NCBI RefSeq assembly: GCF_038594945.1
Contig: NZ_JBCFYD010000001.1
Span: 620,001 to 684,000, forward strand
DNA: 64,000 nucleotides
Reading direction: 5' to 3'
Source of the DNA: Fodinibius sp. Rm-B-1B1-1
GTDB taxonomy: Bacteria > Bacteroidota > Rhodothermia > Balneolales > Balneolaceae
Part shown: positions 6,185 to 14,205 of the stretch, one piece after another
Position numbering within the stretch: position 1 is the stretch's first letter
Layout: every line of letters starts with the position of its first letter
Made by a program: the position numbers and the translations under genes
Notes under the pieces: generated by a model
What the model was told of the DNA's origin: nothing
Database searches by the model: none
The model's input: the letters and a program-made list of their open reading frames with translations, nothing else

Positions 6185-6832
6185 ATGAGATCACTGACTA
6201 AAAAACAGACACAACTTTGGGACTACATCATTGATCATATTAAAGATCATGACCAGTTCCCGACCTTTGCCAATATTCAAGACGAATTCGGATACGCCTC
6301 TCCCAATAGCGTAACCCAGCAGATTAACTCCCTGGTACAAAAAAATTATCTGCAGAAAGTGGATTGGGGTAAATATGTCATTCATCCCTCTAAACGCAAA
6401 CAAATACCGGGTATCGATCCCGGCATCCCTGTAAAAGGACGTATTGCAGCCGGGGGCATGCATCAAGCTATTAGCGAAAATCTCGGGCACCTTCCGGTCG
6501 AAATACATCCCGCCAAATCAGATCACTACTTTGCCCTTATCGTAGATGGCGACAGTATGATCGATGCCGATATCAGTGATGGTGACTACATTATTATCGA
6601 CCCACGTGAACCCCGGGACGGCGAAATTGGAGCTATCTTATACAATGGAGAAACCACCCTAAAAACCATCCGTAAGAAAAAAGACCGTATAGTTCTTCAG
6701 CCCGAAAATCCGGACTACGACCCCATTCATATTACTCCTGACGAATGGGAAGAGGTTCAGGTATTTGGTACCCTGGTGGGAAAGGCCTGGAAAAAGAATG
6801 GCAACTGGGGATTAATATTTCGAACGGGGTAA
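6185..6832 (+). CDS. lexA: LexA repressor / autoprotease
   Basis: 215 residues with an N-terminal winged-helix DNA-binding domain (about 1-70) and a C-terminal S24 peptidase domain. The self-cleavage site is the Ala89-Gly90 bond in GRIAAGG. The catalytic dyad is Ser124 (DGDSM) and Lys160 (TTLKTIR), all in canonical positions, so RecA-stimulated cleavage and SOS derepression are expected. The recognition helix region (SPNSVTQQINSLVQKN) differs from the E. coli type, in line with a non-canonical operator. The start ATG sits directly after a -10-like element. It ends 7 bp from the convergent GbsR-like gene. Confidence 0.93.
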   Translation: MRSLTKKQTQLWDYIIDHIKDHDQFPTFANIQDEFGYASPNSVTQQINSLVQKNYLQKVDWGKYVIHPSKRKQIPGIDPGIPVKGRIAAGGMHQAISENLGHLPVEIHPAKSDHYFALIVDGDSMIDADISDGDYIIIDPREPRDGEIGAILYNGETTLKTIRKKKDRIVLQPENPDYDPIHITPDEWEEVQVFGTLVGKAWKKNGNWGLIFRTG

Positions 6833-6839
6833 AGCGGGC

Positions 6840-7325
6840 TTAGCCTTCACAACTCTTTTTGTACGCCTCTATGGATTCGGGAAAATGATCGGTAACAAAC
6901 TCATAAAAGTCGTGCATCTCACTTAACCGGCCAACATCGTCCTCTCCCTCAGCTTTCAGTAGTTCAATATATTTTGCTGAAATATTGCGCAATTCACTCA
7001 TAATCTCAATCTGTCGTTCCATCACCTTGCACCAGGCATGATCAACCAGCTTAAAATAGGTCTGCCGTTCGCCCGGCATCCGAACCTTTTCAATAAATCC
7101 AGCCTGCAAAAGCAATCGTGTCATATTACTGATAGAAGCCTTACTTACATTCAAGTGTTCTACCAAGTCATTGAATGATTGCGCCTCAGGCTTACAAACA
7201 TGCAGCCAAGCCAAAATTTGTCCGCTGATACGAGAATGCCCTTGCTCCTCAAAAATAAGGCTCGCTTCATCTACAAACGCTTTCTTTTCCTTGTACAATT
7301 TGTCATCCAATTCTAATTCTGCCAT
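6840..7325 (-). CDS. GbsR/MarR-family transcriptional regulator (operon 3' gene)
   Basis: 161 residues with a MarR-like winged helix: ISGQILAWLHVCKPEAQSFNDLVEHLNVSKASISNMTRLLLQAGFIEKV is the helix-turn-helix plus wing, and a C-terminal helical dimerisation tail follows. This matches the GbsR branch, which regulates transport, osmolyte or efflux functions in other bacteria. It is the last gene of the minus-strand operon that starts at 14205, 22 bp after the metallophosphoesterase gene, so it probably regulates that operon. The ligand is unknown. A second, longer GbsR-like protein is encoded at 60263. Confidence 0.8.
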   Translation of the reverse strand: MAELELDDKLYKEKKAFVDEASLIFEEQGHSRISGQILAWLHVCKPEAQSFNDLVEHLNVSKASISNMTRLLLQAGFIEKVRMPGERQTYFKLVDHAWCKVMERQIEIMSELRNISAKYIELLKAEGEDDVGRLSEMHDFYEFVTDHFPESIEAYKKSCEG

Positions 7326-7347
7326 TACCCTAACCTCGAAATTTATA

Positions 7348-8502
7348 TTATTTAGCTACTGGAATATTCTTCGGCTGAACACTCACTTGTTGTTCAAAAA
7401 GCCGATTACCCTTTTCATTCCAAAATTCTACCCAAATACTGTTTTTATAATAATGCAATACCCCAAAACCTTTTTGCTGGATACCAAAGTTGGGAGACTC
7501 CGGTGTTCGTACATAACTGCTAACCGATGCTGATCCACTGACGATATAATATTGGTTACGTCGCTTATCCCCAAAAGTAATATATTGCAGGTTGTGATCA
7601 TGTCCTGAGGCATAAATGAGGGGATCTCGCTCCATAAAAACGGACGCTAATTGCGCTTTAAATTTACCATAATTCCCTGAGCTAATATCCTGTGCCGTAC
7701 CTACAAGATTGCGATACAATACATATAGGGATCCTCCTACTGGTGGAACTAAATGTGTTTTTAGCGGAAATTTACCGCCATTCGTTCCATTCGAGTATAT
7801 TGGATGATGCCCTGCTACCAGCACCTGATCAACCTCCTCATCCGTCACTGCTGCACGCAATTTTTGGATCGCCTGCTTGCTCGATGCCTCAAAAGCACTA
7901 TCGGTTTCAGCGCCCGGTTTTTTATGGGGATGCAACCACCACTGCGTATCCAACACAACAATAGATAAGTTCAACTTTTCGTTACCCGCTTTTACCACGG
8001 CCGGACCTGGTTGCCCATTATCCGGGAGAAACACATTACCTCGATTTAGTGACTCTTCTACAAAACGTTCTTGTCGTTGAAGATATTCCAAGCCCTCTCG
8101 GCTGCTTGATTTCCAGTCGTGATTTCCGGCCAAAAACACAACTTGTCCCGCATAATTTTCTACCGTTTTAAACTGTGCCTGCAAAAACATTTCCGATTCT
8201 GTCCGTCTCCGGTGACCTTCTGGTGGCAAACCATGTGGATACACGTTGTCCCCTAAAAAGATTACCGCACTCTGTTCGCCCGCTTCTTGAAGCTGCTCGC
8301 GCAGAATAGCTAAACTTGGTTCGAGCGGATCGAGTGAAGAATCACCCGCATCCCCTACTAAGAACACAGAATATATTCGTTCACTTTCATCAGGCTGTCT
8401 ACTTTGCTCTACTACAGGCACTTCATCCACCGATGGAGGCTTTGTGGAAACACATCCACCAACAAAAGCCATAACTATAAATATGGATAATAATTTCTTC
8501 AT
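7348..8502 (-). CDS. Lipoprotein metallophosphoesterase (purple acid phosphatase-like)
   Basis: 384 residues with a lipoprotein signal (lipobox VGGC, Cys17) and a calcineurin-like phosphoesterase domain. The metal-site motifs appear in order: FLVGDAGD, FLGDNVYPHG, FLAGNHDWKSS, VAGHHPIYSNG and SGHDHNLQY. It should therefore be a di-metal phosphatase or phosphodiesterase facing the periplasm or cell surface. It is preceded, with a 12-bp gap, by a lipoprotein that looks like an atypical kinase, so dephosphorylation of that kinase's product is one attractive role. Nucleotide or phosphate-ester hydrolysis is the simpler alternative. Confidence 0.85.
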   Translation of the reverse strand: MKKLLSIFIVMAFVGGCVSTKPPSVDEVPVVEQSRQPDESERIYSVFLVGDAGDSSLDPLEPSLAILREQLQEAGEQSAVIFLGDNVYPHGLPPEGHRRRTESEMFLQAQFKTVENYAGQVVFLAGNHDWKSSSREGLEYLQRQERFVEESLNRGNVFLPDNGQPGPAVVKAGNEKLNLSIVVLDTQWWLHPHKKPGAETDSAFEASSKQAIQKLRAAVTDEEVDQVLVAGHHPIYSNGTNGGKFPLKTHLVPPVGGSLYVLYRNLVGTAQDISSGNYGKFKAQLASVFMERDPLIYASGHDHNLQYITFGDKRRNQYYIVSGSASVSSYVRTPESPNFGIQQKGFGVLHYYKNSIWVEFWNEKGNRLFEQQVSVQPKNIPVAK

Positions 8503-8514
8503 TGTTTTGATTTC

Positions 8515-10191
8515 TTATTCTTCACGTTCAATTCCTACTACCCGGCTATTTCCATCTTTCAATTCAATATACACGGTGACCCTTTTATTATTCCCGACAA
8601 GCTCTTTACCAAGCGTTGTTATGTCAAAGTGCAATACATCATCCGTAAAAATGTCTCCGTTGAGCTCTACAATCATTTTCGGCTCGCTAAACGTTTCAAT
8701 GACTGACAGTGAACGATTCTCTGATCTAACCTTTATTTCGTATTGATGATCCGACTCCTCAACAAGTTTGCCATCCACACTCAAATCCCTAAAAGAGAAT
8801 CGAAGCTCATCTCCGTCTACGAAGACCTCAAACTTATCCAGGGGATTAATCTTCGCAAACCAGTAGCGTCCTATTTTATCACGACGTTCCATCAATATTT
8901 GAGCAACATATTCTTCGGCTTTAGGATTAGAGTATTCGCCCGTTGCTACGATGGCTTGTATATCTTCATCTGAAAAACTCATAACCTGTTTAGCTCCCCA
9001 AAACGCATCACGAAGTGTCATATTCTCAAAGGGGGGGAGCGGATGCGTGGGAACCCAACGCCCGGGTTTAAATACATCCGCGCGAAAATAACCCACCGCA
9101 GGATACGGGACTTCCGGCTCAATCTGTTCCCAGGGCATTACATAACCACCCATTGAAAATGCGGATACCAACATATAACGGGGATCAATTAAATAAGCCT
9201 GCCCCTGAATAGGCTGATGAATAGACGTTCCATTTGCTCCCAACGTGTTACCAAAATCCTGCACGTAATGGTCAATATAGCCCTCATCATTATAGACCGC
9301 CATGGTGTTGGCATCGCGCCGGTCGGTGTCATTAAGCCACGAACTAATCACACGCATACCTCGTAACTCACGCCGATGCTCATGCGCTACCCGATCGTTG
9401 GGATCTTCTTTTAGCGTTCCTTCGAAACTCCACGGCCCAAGGGGAATACCATCTACAAATTTACTGGCCAATGCTCGAACTTTTCCATCTTCATTTTGGG
9501 GACGACCTTTAACAATTTCACGATAGTCGTCCATTGTCATAACTCGTTTTTTTCCGTTTTCTTCTACTGTCACACCTTCGCCAATAGTCACTTTATTGGG
9601 ATCAAAATAAGTAATTATGGATTCAGGAACCGTATAGCCCGCAGCGTAGAAAACCTTGGTTGATATTGCATCAGCCGCCGTGGTAAGCTCGGGATAGTCG
9701 TAGCCGTCAAACTTTATGAGATACCGATTTCCGTTTTCATCCTTAATAAAAAATCCAGAATTGGCTCCTTCGAGCTTAGCTTTAAAAATTGTCCATTTCC
9801 CGTCCGTATCAGGAGCCTCGGTACTGGGCCCCGTTGCCAACTCTTCTGGCGACATCTCTTGGTGATAATGCCGATACGTGTACCAGCTCGACTCGGGAAC
9901 CTCATCCAACTTATTGATATTATCGGCCTGACGCTTGTTACTTATTCCCAACCAGCGTCCAACCCGGTTCAGGTTTAACGGCTTTTCAAGCTGATGGAAA
10001 ATAGTATTATCGATGCGATCCCAATACTGGTATTGTGGTTGTTCCGGCGGCATCTCGATATGGGACGTATCAGGATCAAAGGTTTTAATCGCACTCTCGG
10101 CATACGGTTTTGTGGTTGAACATCCCTGCATAGCCCCCCCCGCTACCAACATCACAAGCCAACTAATATATAAGGTAGATCTCTTTATCAT
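8515..10191 (-). CDS. Lipoprotein with atypical (HipA/PI3K/Fam20-like) kinase motifs
   Basis: 558 residues with an N-terminal signal and probable lipidation Cys24 (AMQGC, a relaxed lipobox). I do not recognise a named family. The central region reads like an atypical kinase fold: a glycine-containing strand EGANSGFF (141-148); a strand with a candidate ATP-binding Lys160 (RYLIKFDGYDYPE); a helix and turn ending AAGYTVPE; a hinge-like ASKFVDGIPLGPW; a catalytic-loop-like NDTDRRDAN (287-295, Asp290 and Asn295); and QDFGNTLG (Asp312 as metal-binding DFG Asp). The last 100 residues look like a beta-sandwich. The domain would be periplasmic or surface-exposed. It lies 4 bp after the Omp85 gene and 12 bp before a phosphatase. 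The kinase call is inference. Confidence 0.6.
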   Translation of the reverse strand: MIKRSTLYISWLVMLVAGGAMQGCSTTKPYAESAIKTFDPDTSHIEMPPEQPQYQYWDRIDNTIFHQLEKPLNLNRVGRWLGISNKRQADNINKLDEVPESSWYTYRHYHQEMSPEELATGPSTEAPDTDGKWTIFKAKLEGANSGFFIKDENGNRYLIKFDGYDYPELTTAADAISTKVFYAAGYTVPESIITYFDPNKVTIGEGVTVEENGKKRVMTMDDYREIVKGRPQNEDGKVRALASKFVDGIPLGPWSFEGTLKEDPNDRVAHEHRRELRGMRVISSWLNDTDRRDANTMAVYNDEGYIDHYVQDFGNTLGANGTSIHQPIQGQAYLIDPRYMLVSAFSMGGYVMPWEQIEPEVPYPAVGYFRADVFKPGRWVPTHPLPPFENMTLRDAFWGAKQVMSFSDEDIQAIVATGEYSNPKAEEYVAQILMERRDKIGRYWFAKINPLDKFEVFVDGDELRFSFRDLSVDGKLVEESDHQYEIKVRSENRSLSVIETFSEPKMIVELNGDIFTDDVLHFDITTLGKELVGNNKRVTVYIELKDGNSRVVGIEREE

Positions 10192-10195
10192 TACA

Positions 10196-11470
10196 CTAAA
10201 AATTAGGCGTTATACTAATTATAAATCGCCCACCTTCGTTACTGAATGCAAATTCTGATCGAAAAGCGAGTCCTTGTTGCGAAAGCAGATGAAACCCAAA
10301 CCCATAAGAAGAACGAAAGTCACTTAGTGCAATATCGCTGTATTCAATGAACGGCTGCCCCTGATCGGTAAAAACGACTATATCCATAAAATCCCAGATC
10401 GGGTAACGATATTCGGCTGTCACCAATACCGTACCGTGCCCTCGAAACCGATTACTTGGGAAGCCTCGCAGATCGCGCGTACCCCCAAGGGAGGCTAACT
10501 CATAAAATGGGATATCGGTCGATCCGATATTTTCTTGCTTCCGTAACTGCACTTTTACACCTACCCGGCGTGTTTTGGGCAAAATAGGCACCGGCAAAAA
10601 GTGGTGTACCTCTCCTCGATATTCTAAAAATTTTAGATTGGCGTTTGTAGTTGACTGTGTCCAGCTTGCTCCTGCCTCATACTGCGTCCCACTTACTGTG
10701 CGCTTTTGCCCATTCTTGTAATTAAACGTCCAGTTGCTACCCACCGAAAATAGCTGCGTGTTACCAAGCAGTGAAGAAGGAATCCGCTCATCAAAATCAT
10801 CTTCATAAGTACTCGTTTTAATTGTTCGATCTCGATATCCAAGATTTACCTCAGCGTGCAACCAGCTATTTAATCGCTGGTTATACTGTACATCAATACT
10901 GCCAAATTCACTGGCATAGCTTAAATCTTCATCATTATTATTTTGATAATACGCGCGTTCGGGATCATTTTCGTACCTTACCTCCAAGGACAATATACCT
11001 TCCGGTATCCCTTTTACAGGCATATCATACTGAAGGTCAAACTCATTATATACCTGTGAGCCAAATAAAATCTCTGCCCGGGCTCGGTGATCTTTTAAAA
11101 AAAGGTGATCGTGATAAAGCAATACTCCCGCAGCAAAGCCCTGCTCTCCTCCAATTTCAATCAGTGGCAGGAAGCCATACGGCCCGCGTTTTCCCTCAAA
11201 CCAGTGGGGATATTCATCCTCGGCATATTTTATAGCATATCCTACAGGGCGCGTAACCCAATGCAGAAGATACGAGGGGGATGCCAAAATATGATAGCCA
11301 ATACCTCGTTCCGTTTTATAAGGTTCTTTATTGGGATTTTCATCACCTGCCTTGGAAGTCGTCGTTGATTGCGGAAAAGCACTTAACGGATAAAGTAACC
11401 CCATAGCCAGCAGAAGAATTACCGCCCATTCCTTACCTCTGATCAAATGATATGTACTTAACAAACTCAT
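10196..11470 (-). CDS. POTRA-less Omp85/BamA-type outer-membrane barrel
   Basis: 424 residues with an N-terminal signal sequence and then a 16-strand-like barrel of the Omp85 surface-antigen type. The hallmark is LGGTRDLRGFPSNRFRG, containing the conserved loop-6 RGF motif, followed by alternating strands to an aromatic C-terminus (TPNF). At this length there is room for the barrel but not for POTRA domains, unlike BamA or TamA. It is therefore more likely a dedicated translocation or anchoring barrel than a general assembly factor. Its ATG overlaps the stop of the upstream transporter gene by one base (TAATG), so translation is probably coupled. The substrate is unknown. Confidence 0.82.
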   Translation of the reverse strand: MSLLSTYHLIRGKEWAVILLLAMGLLYPLSAFPQSTTTSKAGDENPNKEPYKTERGIGYHILASPSYLLHWVTRPVGYAIKYAEDEYPHWFEGKRGPYGFLPLIEIGGEQGFAAGVLLYHDHLFLKDHRARAEILFGSQVYNEFDLQYDMPVKGIPEGILSLEVRYENDPERAYYQNNNDEDLSYASEFGSIDVQYNQRLNSWLHAEVNLGYRDRTIKTSTYEDDFDERIPSSLLGNTQLFSVGSNWTFNYKNGQKRTVSGTQYEAGASWTQSTTNANLKFLEYRGEVHHFLPVPILPKTRRVGVKVQLRKQENIGSTDIPFYELASLGGTRDLRGFPSNRFRGHGTVLVTAEYRYPIWDFMDIVVFTDQGQPFIEYSDIALSDFRSSYGFGFHLLSQQGLAFRSEFAFSNEGGRFIISITPNF

Positions 11471-14205
11471 TATCTTTCTGACCTAAGAGGTATTTTTACA
11501 TGATCCGGGCGTTGCTCTTCAGATACTGAAATCTTTGAAAAGCCCTTGTGCTCCAACTCTTCTTCAAGCTCTGGATGGCAGATCTCACGGAAAAAATGCA
11601 TTGCTTTTTCAGCACTATTTATCGAACTATTAAAATTATTATCTGGAATGCGACCCGTATTGTAGGCCTCCAAAATTGGAATCAATACCTTCCGGATATC
11701 CCATGAGATAAGGTTTTCAATAAACTCAATAGCATTAGCTTTCAGGTTTGCATCATTTCCTACAATAGCCTTGTAAGCATTTTCAATATCATTGATATCA
11801 TTATTGAGACTTAGCAGACGAAAAATATTTTCAAAGGTTTGGTCTACCTCGTATTCAAGAATCTCATTCGCATTCTCTGTAAGGGGAACTCTGCTCTTCT
11901 GATGGACTTCGTGTGCTTTTACCAATTTTGAGTATCGACCGATTTCCCTAATCACATTTTGAGAAATGATTTCATCAGATACTCGCAGATCATCCCGTTC
12001 CTTTCGCATACGCACCATGGCTTTAATAACTCCATGACGGATAGGAATAGAACAGAATTTTAAACTCATTTTTAGTATATCCCAAGAATCTTCCGTCACT
12101 GTTTGGGAAAATAACCAAGGTATATACCGGCGCGTGGAATTGGGCAAATAATTATCAACCATGTGGTCGTACATCGTTCCGTAAATACGACTGCCGTATT
12201 TTTTAAGTGCTTTTTCTACTGTTTTGCGATAGATCCCATTTCCCATTAACAACAATAAATCATGAACAAATCGGCGATCCTGCGTCTTCCCAGCACTTTT
12301 GATAGCCTGCTTCACTACTGATGGGTGCTCATTATTGAGCAACTGCTTAATAAAATGAGCTCGGTCATAATTATATACCACTCCCAGAACCTTAGCAGCT
12401 TGTTTACGAAGCTCATGAGCATAATCACCCTCAAATGATAAGGCCTCTCGCAGTAACTCATCCGTTATCAATTCATATTCACTATGCTCTCCATCTTCGG
12501 CAATTAATCCTATAGCAACCGCTCTAATTCGGGCATCTTCGTGGTGCAATCCTACCTCAAGCTTTTCCCTGACCTCTCCTTCATAAAACTGATATACATA
12601 TCGCAGGGCCTCAATTCGTACATCAGGATTATCGTCATACACCAATTCAATGACCTCATCTACAAAATCCCCCCTTCCTTTCCGGCGAAGCATCTCCAAC
12701 AGTTTTATTCGCACTTTACTATCGGGATGATGAACATGGTCTACCAACAGATCCGAATTTACCTGTACATCTTTGCTCATTATCGCTTCGAATGCCCAAA
12801 GAATATCCTCTTCGTGATCACTTTTGAGAAGTTCCCTTATTGTTTCTGCGGATGTTTTTTCGGGCACCCTTTTCGACTTATTATGCTTTTCCCATTTGCG
12901 ACCAATTTTTCTTTTTAGATTATTTCGATAGACATCAATATACGAGTTGCCCGCCATTTTGGCGATAACAACCCAAGCAACCAACAATATGATGACGACA
13001 ACTGAAATGCCCTGAACATTTAAGTTAAGACCAAACGTCAATCCCAGGAGCAGTATTCCCGTTATGCCTTGCGCCCCGTGATCTACAAATAGATCAATAA
13101 ATACTTTGACCCTGTTTTTGAGCTTTCGTGGCAGCGGGACAAACAGAAGTTCGCGGCCCGTACGGTCAATAGAATGCTTGAGCGTTTGATCTATGCCACG
13201 ACTCATAGTACCGGCCACTAATCCCGGTATAAGCAACATACCCCCGGCGCTAATCAACAAGGCCAAAGGCAATAATAACAGAGAACCGGAAACGCCATAT
13301 TTTTTTGTGAATATCGTCCCTATAAATAACTGGATGAGCAACGCTATCAGGCTAACCCGGCCGTAAAACTTTCCCATAAAACTGGTTAAAGCCGCTTCGG
13401 TTGTAAAAGCAGCCTCGGCCACCGTTTTAAACTGGTAGTCAATCAGTGTTGTTACCATCACCGTAACTGCGATAAGAGCCACAATTAACAGCAAATGATT
13501 ATGTGACAAGATCTCTTTCAGCGGATTTACAGACACTGATTCATCAACCTTAGAATAATCCTCTTTGTCTATCTCCAAGGCACCTTTCTTGCTATTATTT
13601 TTCAGAATAACCCACACCATTGGGATCGTTACAATCATCGTAATAGCAGAGATTAACAACAGAGATTCGGGGCGCAATGCCAATTGGTTAATGAATACAG
13701 CTGTTAGCTCTCCACCCGTGAAGCCCCCTGCAATAGCCCCAAGACTTAAAAAGCCAAAAATCTTTTTGGATTGCACTGAGTTAAAAATGGTATTGGCAAA
13801 TAACCAGAACTGGGAGGTGATCAATACGCTGTAAATACTAACCCAGATATAGAAACCGTAATACAGCCAGGCACTACTCATTTCTATGAAGAACCAAATC
13901 ACGATAAGATTAGCAGCTAAAAAAAGCGTTATAGCTGACACGACCCATCCCACAGAGTGCCGCTTGGAAAGACGTGAATAGCCAATAGAAATAGGAATAA
14001 CGGCTATAGCTGTTAACATAAATACAAACGGTAGGTTGTATGCACCCACTTGCTCAAGAAATAGGCTATCACGCACTGGCTTGAGCAAGTACAGCGTATT
14101 AAGCAGTACAAAATTGTACACAAACATTAATAGGGCTTGTGTTTTAATTTCAGGCTCAAGCGTAAAGAGCGCCCTAAAATCCTTCCCGATGTTTCCGATA
14201 CTCAT
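11470..14205 (-). CDS. ATP/ADP-translocase-like transporter fused to HEAT repeats
   Basis: 911 residues. The first ~420 contain about twelve membrane helices of the Npt/TLC nucleotide-transporter (MFS-like) type. The landmark is TLYLLKPVRDSLFLEQVGAYNLPF in the first helices, which resembles the K-x-x-R-D signature of plastid and chlamydial ATP/ADP translocases. From about residue 440 to 830 the protein is soluble and alpha-helical with HEAT-like repeats (for example HPDSKVRIKLLEMLRRKGR, then DDNPDVRIEALRYVYQFYE). It should sit in the inner membrane and move a nucleotide or related anion, with the HEAT part as a cytoplasmic docking platform. It heads the operon with the Omp85 barrel, kinase-like lipoprotein, phosphatase and GbsR regulator. 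Substrate and direction are not proven. Confidence 0.75.
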   Translation of the reverse strand: MSIGNIGKDFRALFTLEPEIKTQALLMFVYNFVLLNTLYLLKPVRDSLFLEQVGAYNLPFVFMLTAIAVIPISIGYSRLSKRHSVGWVVSAITLFLAANLIVIWFFIEMSSAWLYYGFYIWVSIYSVLITSQFWLFANTIFNSVQSKKIFGFLSLGAIAGGFTGGELTAVFINQLALRPESLLLISAITMIVTIPMVWVILKNNSKKGALEIDKEDYSKVDESVSVNPLKEILSHNHLLLIVALIAVTVMVTTLIDYQFKTVAEAAFTTEAALTSFMGKFYGRVSLIALLIQLFIGTIFTKKYGVSGSLLLLPLALLISAGGMLLIPGLVAGTMSRGIDQTLKHSIDRTGRELLFVPLPRKLKNRVKVFIDLFVDHGAQGITGILLLGLTFGLNLNVQGISVVVIILLVAWVVIAKMAGNSYIDVYRNNLKRKIGRKWEKHNKSKRVPEKTSAETIRELLKSDHEEDILWAFEAIMSKDVQVNSDLLVDHVHHPDSKVRIKLLEMLRRKGRGDFVDEVIELVYDDNPDVRIEALRYVYQFYEGEVREKLEVGLHHEDARIRAVAIGLIAEDGEHSEYELITDELLREALSFEGDYAHELRKQAAKVLGVVYNYDRAHFIKQLLNNEHPSVVKQAIKSAGKTQDRRFVHDLLLLMGNGIYRKTVEKALKKYGSRIYGTMYDHMVDNYLPNSTRRYIPWLFSQTVTEDSWDILKMSLKFCSIPIRHGVIKAMVRMRKERDDLRVSDEIISQNVIREIGRYSKLVKAHEVHQKSRVPLTENANEILEYEVDQTFENIFRLLSLNNDINDIENAYKAIVGNDANLKANAIEFIENLISWDIRKVLIPILEAYNTGRIPDNNFNSSINSAEKAMHFFREICHPELEEELEHKGFSKISVSEEQRPDHVKIPLRSER

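What the first reader, a model, noticed from the sequence alone, without database searches (positions are those of the whole stretch)
6840..14205. Candidate envelope phosphorylation operon: nucleotide translocase-HEAT, Omp85, kinase-like lipoprotein, phosphatase, GbsR
Five minus-strand genes are joined by a 1-bp overlap and gaps of 4, 12 and 22 bp. In order they encode an ATP/ADP-translocase-like transporter fused to HEAT repeats, a POTRA-less Omp85 barrel, a lipoprotein with kinase-like motifs, a lipoprotein metallophosphoesterase and a GbsR/MarR regulator. The sequence shows the gene order and motifs. Family knowledge says Npt/TLC proteins exchange nucleotides across membranes and that periplasmic ATP is otherwise scarce. 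The inference is that the transporter supplies ATP to an extracytoplasmic kinase whose product is reversed by the phosphatase, with the barrel anchoring or exporting the target. I know of no named system of this composition.
Basis: partly seen in the sequence, partly recalled or inferred. Interest (0 to 1): 0.85.

Follow-up and report, generated by a model that had tools for sequence, protein, structure and literature searches.

The report
ATP-fed kinase of the bacterial envelope
Some bacteria seem to carry a kinase outside the inner membrane together with the membrane carrier that would bring it ATP, which suggests a way to run phosphorylation where ATP is normally scarce.

Summary
Confirmed: five minus-strand genes at the stated places and spacings. 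The third gene belongs to a family absent from Pfam (0 of 40 members). Its central domain models well (pLDDT 91.4) as a protein-kinase-like fold, nearest CtkA, FAM20, CotH, PI4K-II and HipT/HipA. An Omp85 barrel gene precedes it in 44 of 44 full-length copies. Of these, 32 keep all catalytic residues and 28 of them have an NTT gene within 1.9 kb; 12 lost the Lys, alpha-C acid, catalytic Asp and Asn, and none has an NTT in the stretch fetched. Across 195 genomes, 26 of 27 with an intact kinase carry an NTT, 0 of 6 with only degenerate copies, 7 of the other 162. On an rpoB tree both traits change together in 8 of 9 independent contrasts. Best reading: an NTT delivers ATP outside the inner membrane and takes ADP back, for a kinase held at the outer membrane. 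Phosphatase and GbsR-like gene are lineage-specific additions; a palindrome before the operon is a likely operator. Transport direction, kinase activity and substrate are untested.

The parts
11470..14205 (-). NTT-HEAT: nucleotide-translocase (TLC) membrane domain, residues ~20-420, fused to a soluble HEAT-repeat C-terminal half
   Evidence: Pfam TLC 49.6 bits and HEAT_2 60.2 bits; a profile of 25 NTT domains incl. this one hits solved NTTs 9j3n/9j3j at 153/150 bits; no hydrophobic segment after residue 430
10196..11470 (-). OMP: outer-membrane barrel of the Omp85 superfamily with signal-like N-terminus, no POTRA hit
   Evidence: PF01103 55.6 bits over residues 131-409; on the same strand and upstream of KIN in 44 of 44 full-length copies
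8515..10191 (-). KIN: lipoprotein with protein-kinase-like fold; K160, D174, D290, N295, D312 as catalytic set; C-terminal fibronectin-III-like domain 448-547
   Evidence: models (whole; domain, pLDDT 91.4, pTM 0.91); fold matches; motif table
7348..8502 (-). MPE: lipoprotein metallophosphoesterase, motifs GDAGD, GDNVYP, GNHD, GHHP, GHDHN (purple-acid-phosphatase-like, recalled)
   Evidence: PF00149 31.6 bits; weak hits to GAP50 and TRAP structures (4.4e-5 to 0.0067); motifs
6840..7325 (-). GBSR: MarR-type winged-helix regulator, last gene of the operon
   Evidence: PF01047 28.9 bits
14242..14281 (.). Palindrome (perfect 16-base arms, centre 8 bases), 36 bases before the NTT-HEAT start; probable operator
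   Evidence: same place in L009 and L010 with diverged flanks; exact match once in each of G000, G081, G151, none in 6 other genus members searched

Best explanation
This is an ATP-delivery and phosphorylation unit of the cell envelope. The NTT carriers (here one fused to HEAT repeats; in 15 of 28 linked loci a stand-alone NTT is present, with or without the fusion) exchange cytoplasmic ATP for the ADP formed outside the inner membrane. The exported lipoprotein KIN, of the protein-kinase-like superfamily and held at or passed through the Omp85 barrel encoded just upstream, uses that ATP to phosphorylate an unknown envelope or surface substrate. In this lineage a metallophosphoesterase lipoprotein removes phosphate (from the product or from spent nucleotides), and a GbsR-like regulator acting at one palindrome switches the operon. 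Shown by computation: gene set and linkage, kinase fold and residues, export signals, NTT homology, joint gain/loss of intact kinase and NTT, the conserved palindrome. Inferred: ATP as cargo, direction of exchange, activity, OMP role, substrate, regulator binding.
For: Kinase fold: VIA Z 15.4 (230 aligned, 3.9 A) to CtkA, 13.1 to FAM20C, 12.7 to CotH, 12.4 to PI4KII-alpha, 11-12 to HipT, 9.9-10.7 to HipA (a second look at Foldseek's top 1000 only). K160, E/D174, D290, N295, D312 in 32 of 32 intact copies. In 12 of 12 degenerate copies K160, the acid at 174, D290 and N295 are all lost while D263, D266, R273, R274, W285 and H308 stay: the nucleotide site decayed, not the whole protein. NTT near KIN: 28 of 32 intact, 0 of 12 degenerate. 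Genomes: 26 of 27, 0 of 6, 7 of 162 (Fisher 7e-25, not corrected for kinship). rpoB tree of 29: 8 of 9 independent contrasts same way, 0 opposite, p 0.0078. In L020 and L022 (Acidobacteria) the stand-alone NTT start overlaps the KIN stop by a few bases.
Against: The 12 degenerate copies are one clade, so the copy-level contrast is one event; L092 lies on a 4-kb contig where an NTT could not be seen. L019 and L071 carry intact KIN without an NTT nearby despite long flanks; L071's genome has only a different NTT-HEAT elsewhere. One of 9 contrasts shows NTT without KIN (G217). In the window's NTT-HEAT a serine stands where the solved NTTs have an acidic residue. NTTs outside the main clade can carry NAD or failed to transport nucleotides (PMC5381601). 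No activity, location or substrate is measured. MPE and GbsR are not conserved with the core.
Confidence: 0.68

Rival explanations
1. Nucleotide scavenging: the barrel and NTT take up extracellular nucleotides, MPE trims them, and KIN has a separate or salvage-related role.
For: NTTs characterised in intracellular parasites import nucleotides (PMC5381601); MPE could be a nucleotidase (family only).
Against: MPE is near KIN in only 7 loci; NTT presence tracks an intact kinase site, which scavenging does not need.
Confidence: 0.12
2. The NTT carries or senses another metabolite (NAD, another nucleotide) and KIN uses that ligand, for instance as an AMPylating or other transferase with the kinase fold.
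For: NTT-HEAT proteins are uncharacterised and one NTT moves NAD (PMC5381601); kinase-like folds with other chemistries are known (recalled); the window's NTT-HEAT lacks one acidic position.
Against: The full kinase set including the Asp at the DFG place is kept in 32 of 32 intact copies; three of four charged NTT positions are kept.
Confidence: 0.13
3. The genes are only a co-inherited cluster with unrelated functions.
For: KIN-NTT clusters are patchy among close genomes and may move as a block, which by itself would make them change together.
Against: Partners stay the same under different gene orders and strands, and in two phyla; the degenerate KIN-OMP pair persists without NTTs, so OMP-KIN and NTT can separate.
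Confidence: 0.07

Closest known systems
NTT-HEAT and NTT-HEAT-cNBD fusion proteins (Major, Embley and Williams 2017, PMC5381601)
   Same: Same domain order; a cNMP-binding gene follows NTT-HEAT in L063 (Pfam) and a like-sized, similar one in L098 (sequence), as they describe
   Different: In parts 1-3 of 4 that I read they report no kinase, Omp85 or phosphatase partner and call the function unknown
Secreted protein-kinase-like enzymes FAM20C / CotH
   Same: Fold (Z 12.3-13.1); FAM20C acts in the secretory pathway (recalled); CotH-Fam20C likeness stated in PMC12189002 (passages)
   Different: 8-11% identity in the fold alignment; KIN has its own carrier and barrel genes; no Pfam family
HipA / HipT / CtkA bacterial kinases
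   Same: Nearest folds (CtkA Z 15.4)
   Different: KIN has a signal sequence with lipobox and sits beside an outer-membrane barrel gene; HipA/HipT act in the cytoplasm (recalled)
Plastid and parasite ATP/ADP carriers (Arabidopsis NTT1 9j3j, Chlamydia 9j3n)
   Same: Homologous membrane domain (profile 150-153 bits)
   Different: There the cell or organelle takes ATP in; here the proposed direction is outward, for an enzyme
Tartrate-resistant (purple) acid phosphatase
   Same: Motif set (recalled) and weak sequence hits
   Different: Lipoprotein; in relatives fused to an Omp85 barrel (L098, L017)

Membership tests
Protein-kinase-like superfamily (KIN) | Two-lobed kinase fold | tested here: met
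   Model pLDDT 91.4; best Z 15.4, and the 50 rows shown are, by title or by my recall of the entry, members of this superfamily
Protein-kinase-like superfamily (KIN) | Beta-3 Lys with alpha-C acid; catalytic Asp with Asn five residues on; metal-binding Asp (motif layout recalled) | tested here: met
   K160, D174, D290, N295, D312; 32 of 32 intact copies, in the expected order of strands and helices
Protein-kinase-like superfamily (KIN) | Phosphotransfer from ATP | not testable with these tools
   needs an assay
NTT / TLC transporter | TLC profile over cut-off | tested here: met
   49.6 bits, cut-off 21
NTT / TLC transporter | Four charged residues held essential in Arabidopsis NTT1 (K, E, E, K; recalled) | tested here: inconclusive
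   Window NTT-HEAT: R45, S123, D256, K367; stand-alone NTTs of the class (15 rows, read by eye): K, D, D, K (alignments)
NTT / TLC transporter | Nucleotide exchange | not testable with these tools
   needs a transport assay
Omp85 superfamily (OMP) | C-terminal barrel profile over cut-off | tested here: met
   PF01103 55.6 bits, cut-off 24
BamA/TamA type of Omp85 (considered, not filed) | N-terminal POTRA domains | tested here: not met
   no POTRA hit at E up to 1
Metallophosphoesterase (MPE) | Metallophos profile over cut-off and metal motifs | tested here: met
   31.6 bits, cut-off 21.5; motifs
GbsR-type MarR regulator | Winged helix of the MarR type | tested here: met
   PF01047 28.9 bits, cut-off 24.6
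GbsR-type MarR regulator | Membership in the choline/betaine regulator group | tested here: inconclusive
   only a weak CudC hit, 16.7 bits against a cut-off of 218

The most novel reading that the evidence does not exclude
Apparently free-living bacteria run a dedicated ATP/ADP exchange line across the inner membrane to power a surface phosphorylation system: a FAM20/CotH-like lipoprotein kinase reaches the outer face through its own Omp85 barrel, and in some lineages a purple-acid-phosphatase-like lipoprotein reverses the marks, a bacterial parallel to animal secretory phosphorylation. The NTT-HEAT family found widely in bacteria would then be, at least in part, ATP exporters for extracytoplasmic enzymes.
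Probability: 0.35. Interest if true: 0.92.

Novelty: categorically new. Interest (0 to 1): 0.82.

Why it matters
How ATP gets from the cytosol to the periplasm is called unresolved in a review (PMC7432876, passages), and the function of NTT-HEAT proteins is called unknown (PMC5381601). A kinase family whose intact form comes and goes with NTTs makes both questions testable: it names a carrier, a consumer and natural comparisons between close genomes (G147 against G195, G305 against G313).

Tried and rejected
Searches of KIN against solved structures by sequence gave only designed armadillo-repeat chains at 0.014 or weaker and nothing by profile; Pfam and NCBIfam at E up to 1, Pfam for 40 relatives at 0.01 and PADLOC gave nothing for KIN. 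PADLOC gave only weak hits to HEAT and HTH parts of the neighbours, so a known defence system is not indicated. KIN has no match in plasmids. A sample of the window's phylum found KIN in 13 of 394 genomes, none outside the window's class; an earlier single-sequence search found 5 of 198. The genome-collection search was one pattern-based scan giving 9 loci, so other phyla are not excluded. Seven NTT-bearing genomes lack KIN: no KIN, OMP or MPE match lies in the stretches fetched (L101, L143-L148; L145 and L146 are short contigs), and 6 of these 7 NTTs score 117-263 against the NTT profile, G217's 416; the complete KIN-linked ones score 304 or more. Foldseek also listed cytokine-receptor and other fibronectin-like chains, which match the C-terminal domain. 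A first rpoB tree held wrong frames for some rows and was replaced. My note gives 33 intact copies with 29 near an NTT; recounted over full-length copies it is 32 and 28. Set aside: L089 (KIN split in two frames, NTTs nearby), L095 (cut by the contig end), G201/L096 (marginal, judged not KIN). Among the 28, L066 shows only the HEAT end of the gene and L072 a cut NTT, both at contig ends, and L011's stand-alone NTT is split in two frames. L021 and L067 lack an NTT on short contigs. Of 30 genomes given to the rpoB search G081 gave none and was dropped; the 30 were chosen by me (all 17 KIN-bearing sampled genomes of one family, the 12 sampled members of the window's genus, G249), not at random, and members of that family without KIN were not included. 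In one search the control (pattern read backwards) also gave one match in G000 at up to 2 mismatches and none in the other 8. Literature: searches listed no paper whose title or shown abstract joins NTTs with a periplasmic kinase or Omp85; some listings were capped (20 of 3,821, 15 of 123) and the library holds open-licence papers only.
Full report
What is there. I call them NTT-HEAT, OMP, KIN, MPE and GBSR. Pfam supports four: TLC plus HEAT_2, Omp85 without POTRA, Metallophos, MarR; KIN hits nothing, and neither do any of 40 relatives at E up to 0.01. KIN, MPE and OMP begin with a hydrophobic signal-like stretch; KIN and MPE have a cysteine after it. A simple pattern finds such a lipobox in 19 of 27 intact KIN copies of the window's class and misses at least L017 and L063, where the alignment shows one (L063 being L016 there). 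The five Acidobacteria copies show no lipobox.

KIN is a kinase-like protein. A first model of the whole protein was moderate (pLDDT 72.6). The domain 96-448 with a 40-row alignment gave pLDDT 91.4 and pTM 0.91. Foldseek's best match is CtkA at 2.3e-5. The structural aligner, which re-ranks Foldseek's top 1000, gives CtkA Z 15.4 over 230 residues at 3.9 A, FAM20C 13.1, CotH 12.7, PI4KII-alpha 12.4, HipT 11-12, HipA 9.9-10.7 and VPS34 about 8; the 50 rows shown are, by title or by my recall of the entry, members of this superfamily. The expected elements come in order: strand ending in K160, helix with the acid at 174, helix 274-286, loop with D290 and N295, two strands, D312. Residues 448-547 resemble fibronectin III domains (Z about 9, about 90 residues). 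A shared fold does not prove activity.

The neighbourhood is conserved. Relatives came from a phylum sample, a genome collection and a class sample searched with a profile. OMP is upstream of KIN on the same strand in 44 of 44 full-length copies (in L092 OMP is cut by the contig end). Of 28 loci with intact KIN and an NTT, 13 show both a stand-alone NTT (about 450 residues) and an NTT-HEAT, 2 a stand-alone NTT alone, and 13 an NTT-HEAT alone, two of these cut at contig ends. In L020 and L022, from records titled Acidobacteria, the stand-alone NTT start overlaps the KIN stop by 4 and 7 bases, and an NTT-HEAT converges on it; L023 is arranged likewise. MPE occurs near KIN in 7 loci and GBSR in 4. 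MPE fused to an Omp85 barrel lies next to NTTs, away from KIN, in L097, L098 and L100.

The natural experiment. Full-length KIN copies fall into two classes. In 32 all five catalytic positions are kept. In 12, K160, the acid at 174, D290 and N295 are all replaced, and D312 in 4 of the 12, while D263, D266, R273, R274, W285 and H308 are kept in 12 of 12. An NTT lies within 1.9 kb of 28 of 32 intact copies and in the fetched stretch of 0 of 12 degenerate copies. The intact exceptions are L019 and L071, with long flanks, and L021 and L067 on short contigs; among the degenerate, L092 is on a 4-kb contig and says nothing. The degenerate copies form one clade (100/100), so this contrast is a single event.

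Genome level. Of 195 class genomes, 34 matched the KIN profile and 33 matched TLC (0 of 14 control genomes). Setting G201 aside as a marginal partial match, 27 have an intact copy (counting G278, split in two frames, and G334, of which only the first half is seen) and 6 have only a degenerate one. TLC is present in 26 of 27, 0 of 6, and 7 of the remaining 162. The exception G294 has KIN on a 5.9-kb contig. Two of the six degenerate-only genomes are 83% complete. The Fisher value 7e-25 (intact against all others) ignores kinship. On an rpoB tree of 29 genomes chosen by me, intact KIN and TLC differ together in 8 of 9 independent pairs and never the opposite way, p 0.0078; the ninth has an NTT without KIN. 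Close pairs such as G195 (both) and G147 (neither), or G313 and G305, show joint gain or loss. Movement of the genes as one block would also give this; what argues for more is the decay of just the nucleotide site in copies without NTTs.

Reading. An enzyme site that needs a nucleotide and a carrier of the nucleotide-translocase family come and go together. Since KIN carries an export signal, the simplest account is that the carrier supplies ATP outside the inner membrane and returns ADP; an exchanger suits a kinase because each turnover makes the counter-substrate. This last step is inference. A review states that it is unclear how ATP passes from cytosol to periplasm in E. coli, which has no ATP/ADP translocase (PMC7432876, passages).

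The NTTs. A profile of 25 NTT domains matches solved Chlamydia and Arabidopsis carriers at 153 and 150 bits. Of four charged positions that I recall as essential in Arabidopsis NTT1, the 15 stand-alone NTTs of the class in the alignment keep all conservatively (K, D, D, K, read by eye) and the window's NTT-HEAT keeps three (R45, D256, K367) but has S123 at the second. The window genome has one TLC match only, so here NTT-HEAT would have to do the work alone. Hydropathy finds 11 segments and none in the HEAT half; with 12, as in the family (recalled), HEAT would be cytoplasmic (inference). Major and colleagues described NTT-HEAT and a following cyclic-nucleotide gene, function unknown (PMC5381601, parts 1-3 of 4); such a gene follows NTT-HEAT in L063.

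Regulation. A palindrome with perfect 16-base arms lies 36 bases before NTT-HEAT. It is kept at about the same place in L009 and L010 although the flanks differ, and a shorter, imperfect form precedes OMP in L011 beside a second GBSR. With up to 2 mismatches allowed it occurs once, exactly, in each of G000, G081 and G151 and in none of 6 other members of the genus; the backward control gave one match in G000. GBSR lies in the operon in the three loci of those genomes; the genomes of the other six were not examined for it beyond G268's locus. This points to a single-target, self-regulating operon; that GBSR binds the site is inferred.

Novelty. Parts belong to known families, KIN being a new one in a known superfamily. 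I found no described system that pairs an NTT with an exported kinase (searches and their limits in Tried and rejected). I therefore rate the arrangement as new in kind, with activity untested.

Noticed in passing
L097:9696-13457, L098:13704-17492, L100:11422-15210, L017:15485-18997: Proteins of about 1170-1260 residues join a metallophosphoesterase to an Omp85 barrel (profiles; Pfam for L098 and L017) and lie beside NTTs or NTT-HEAT.
   Followed up: partly
L022:14872-16488, L020:14902-16536: In Acidobacteria records a gene directly upstream of NTT-HEAT, on its strand, is a Ser/Thr protein kinase in L022 (PF00069, 140 bits); the L020 gene has a like start but was not scanned.
   Followed up: partly
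L089:8151-9855 and L011:5654-7154: KIN in G278 is split into two frames and the stand-alone NTT of the second G081 copy is split too; possible pseudogenes or sequencing errors. Left unjoined.
   Followed up: no
L010 and L011 (G081): One genome holds two diverged copies of the OMP-KIN unit about 9 kb apart, each with its own GbsR-like gene.
   Followed up: partly
window 6185-6832 +: LexA-like repressor gene convergent with the operon, ending 7 bases from it.
   Followed up: no
L101:8598-11438 and L102:8614-11454: A second NTT-HEAT type (946 residues), in G217 and G249, follows a gene of about 320-330 residues and faces two convergent genes of about 420 and 970 residues, with no KIN nearby.
   Followed up: no
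L148:7273-10575: NTT-HEAT-cNMP fusion of 1100 residues in another family of the window's order.
   Followed up: no
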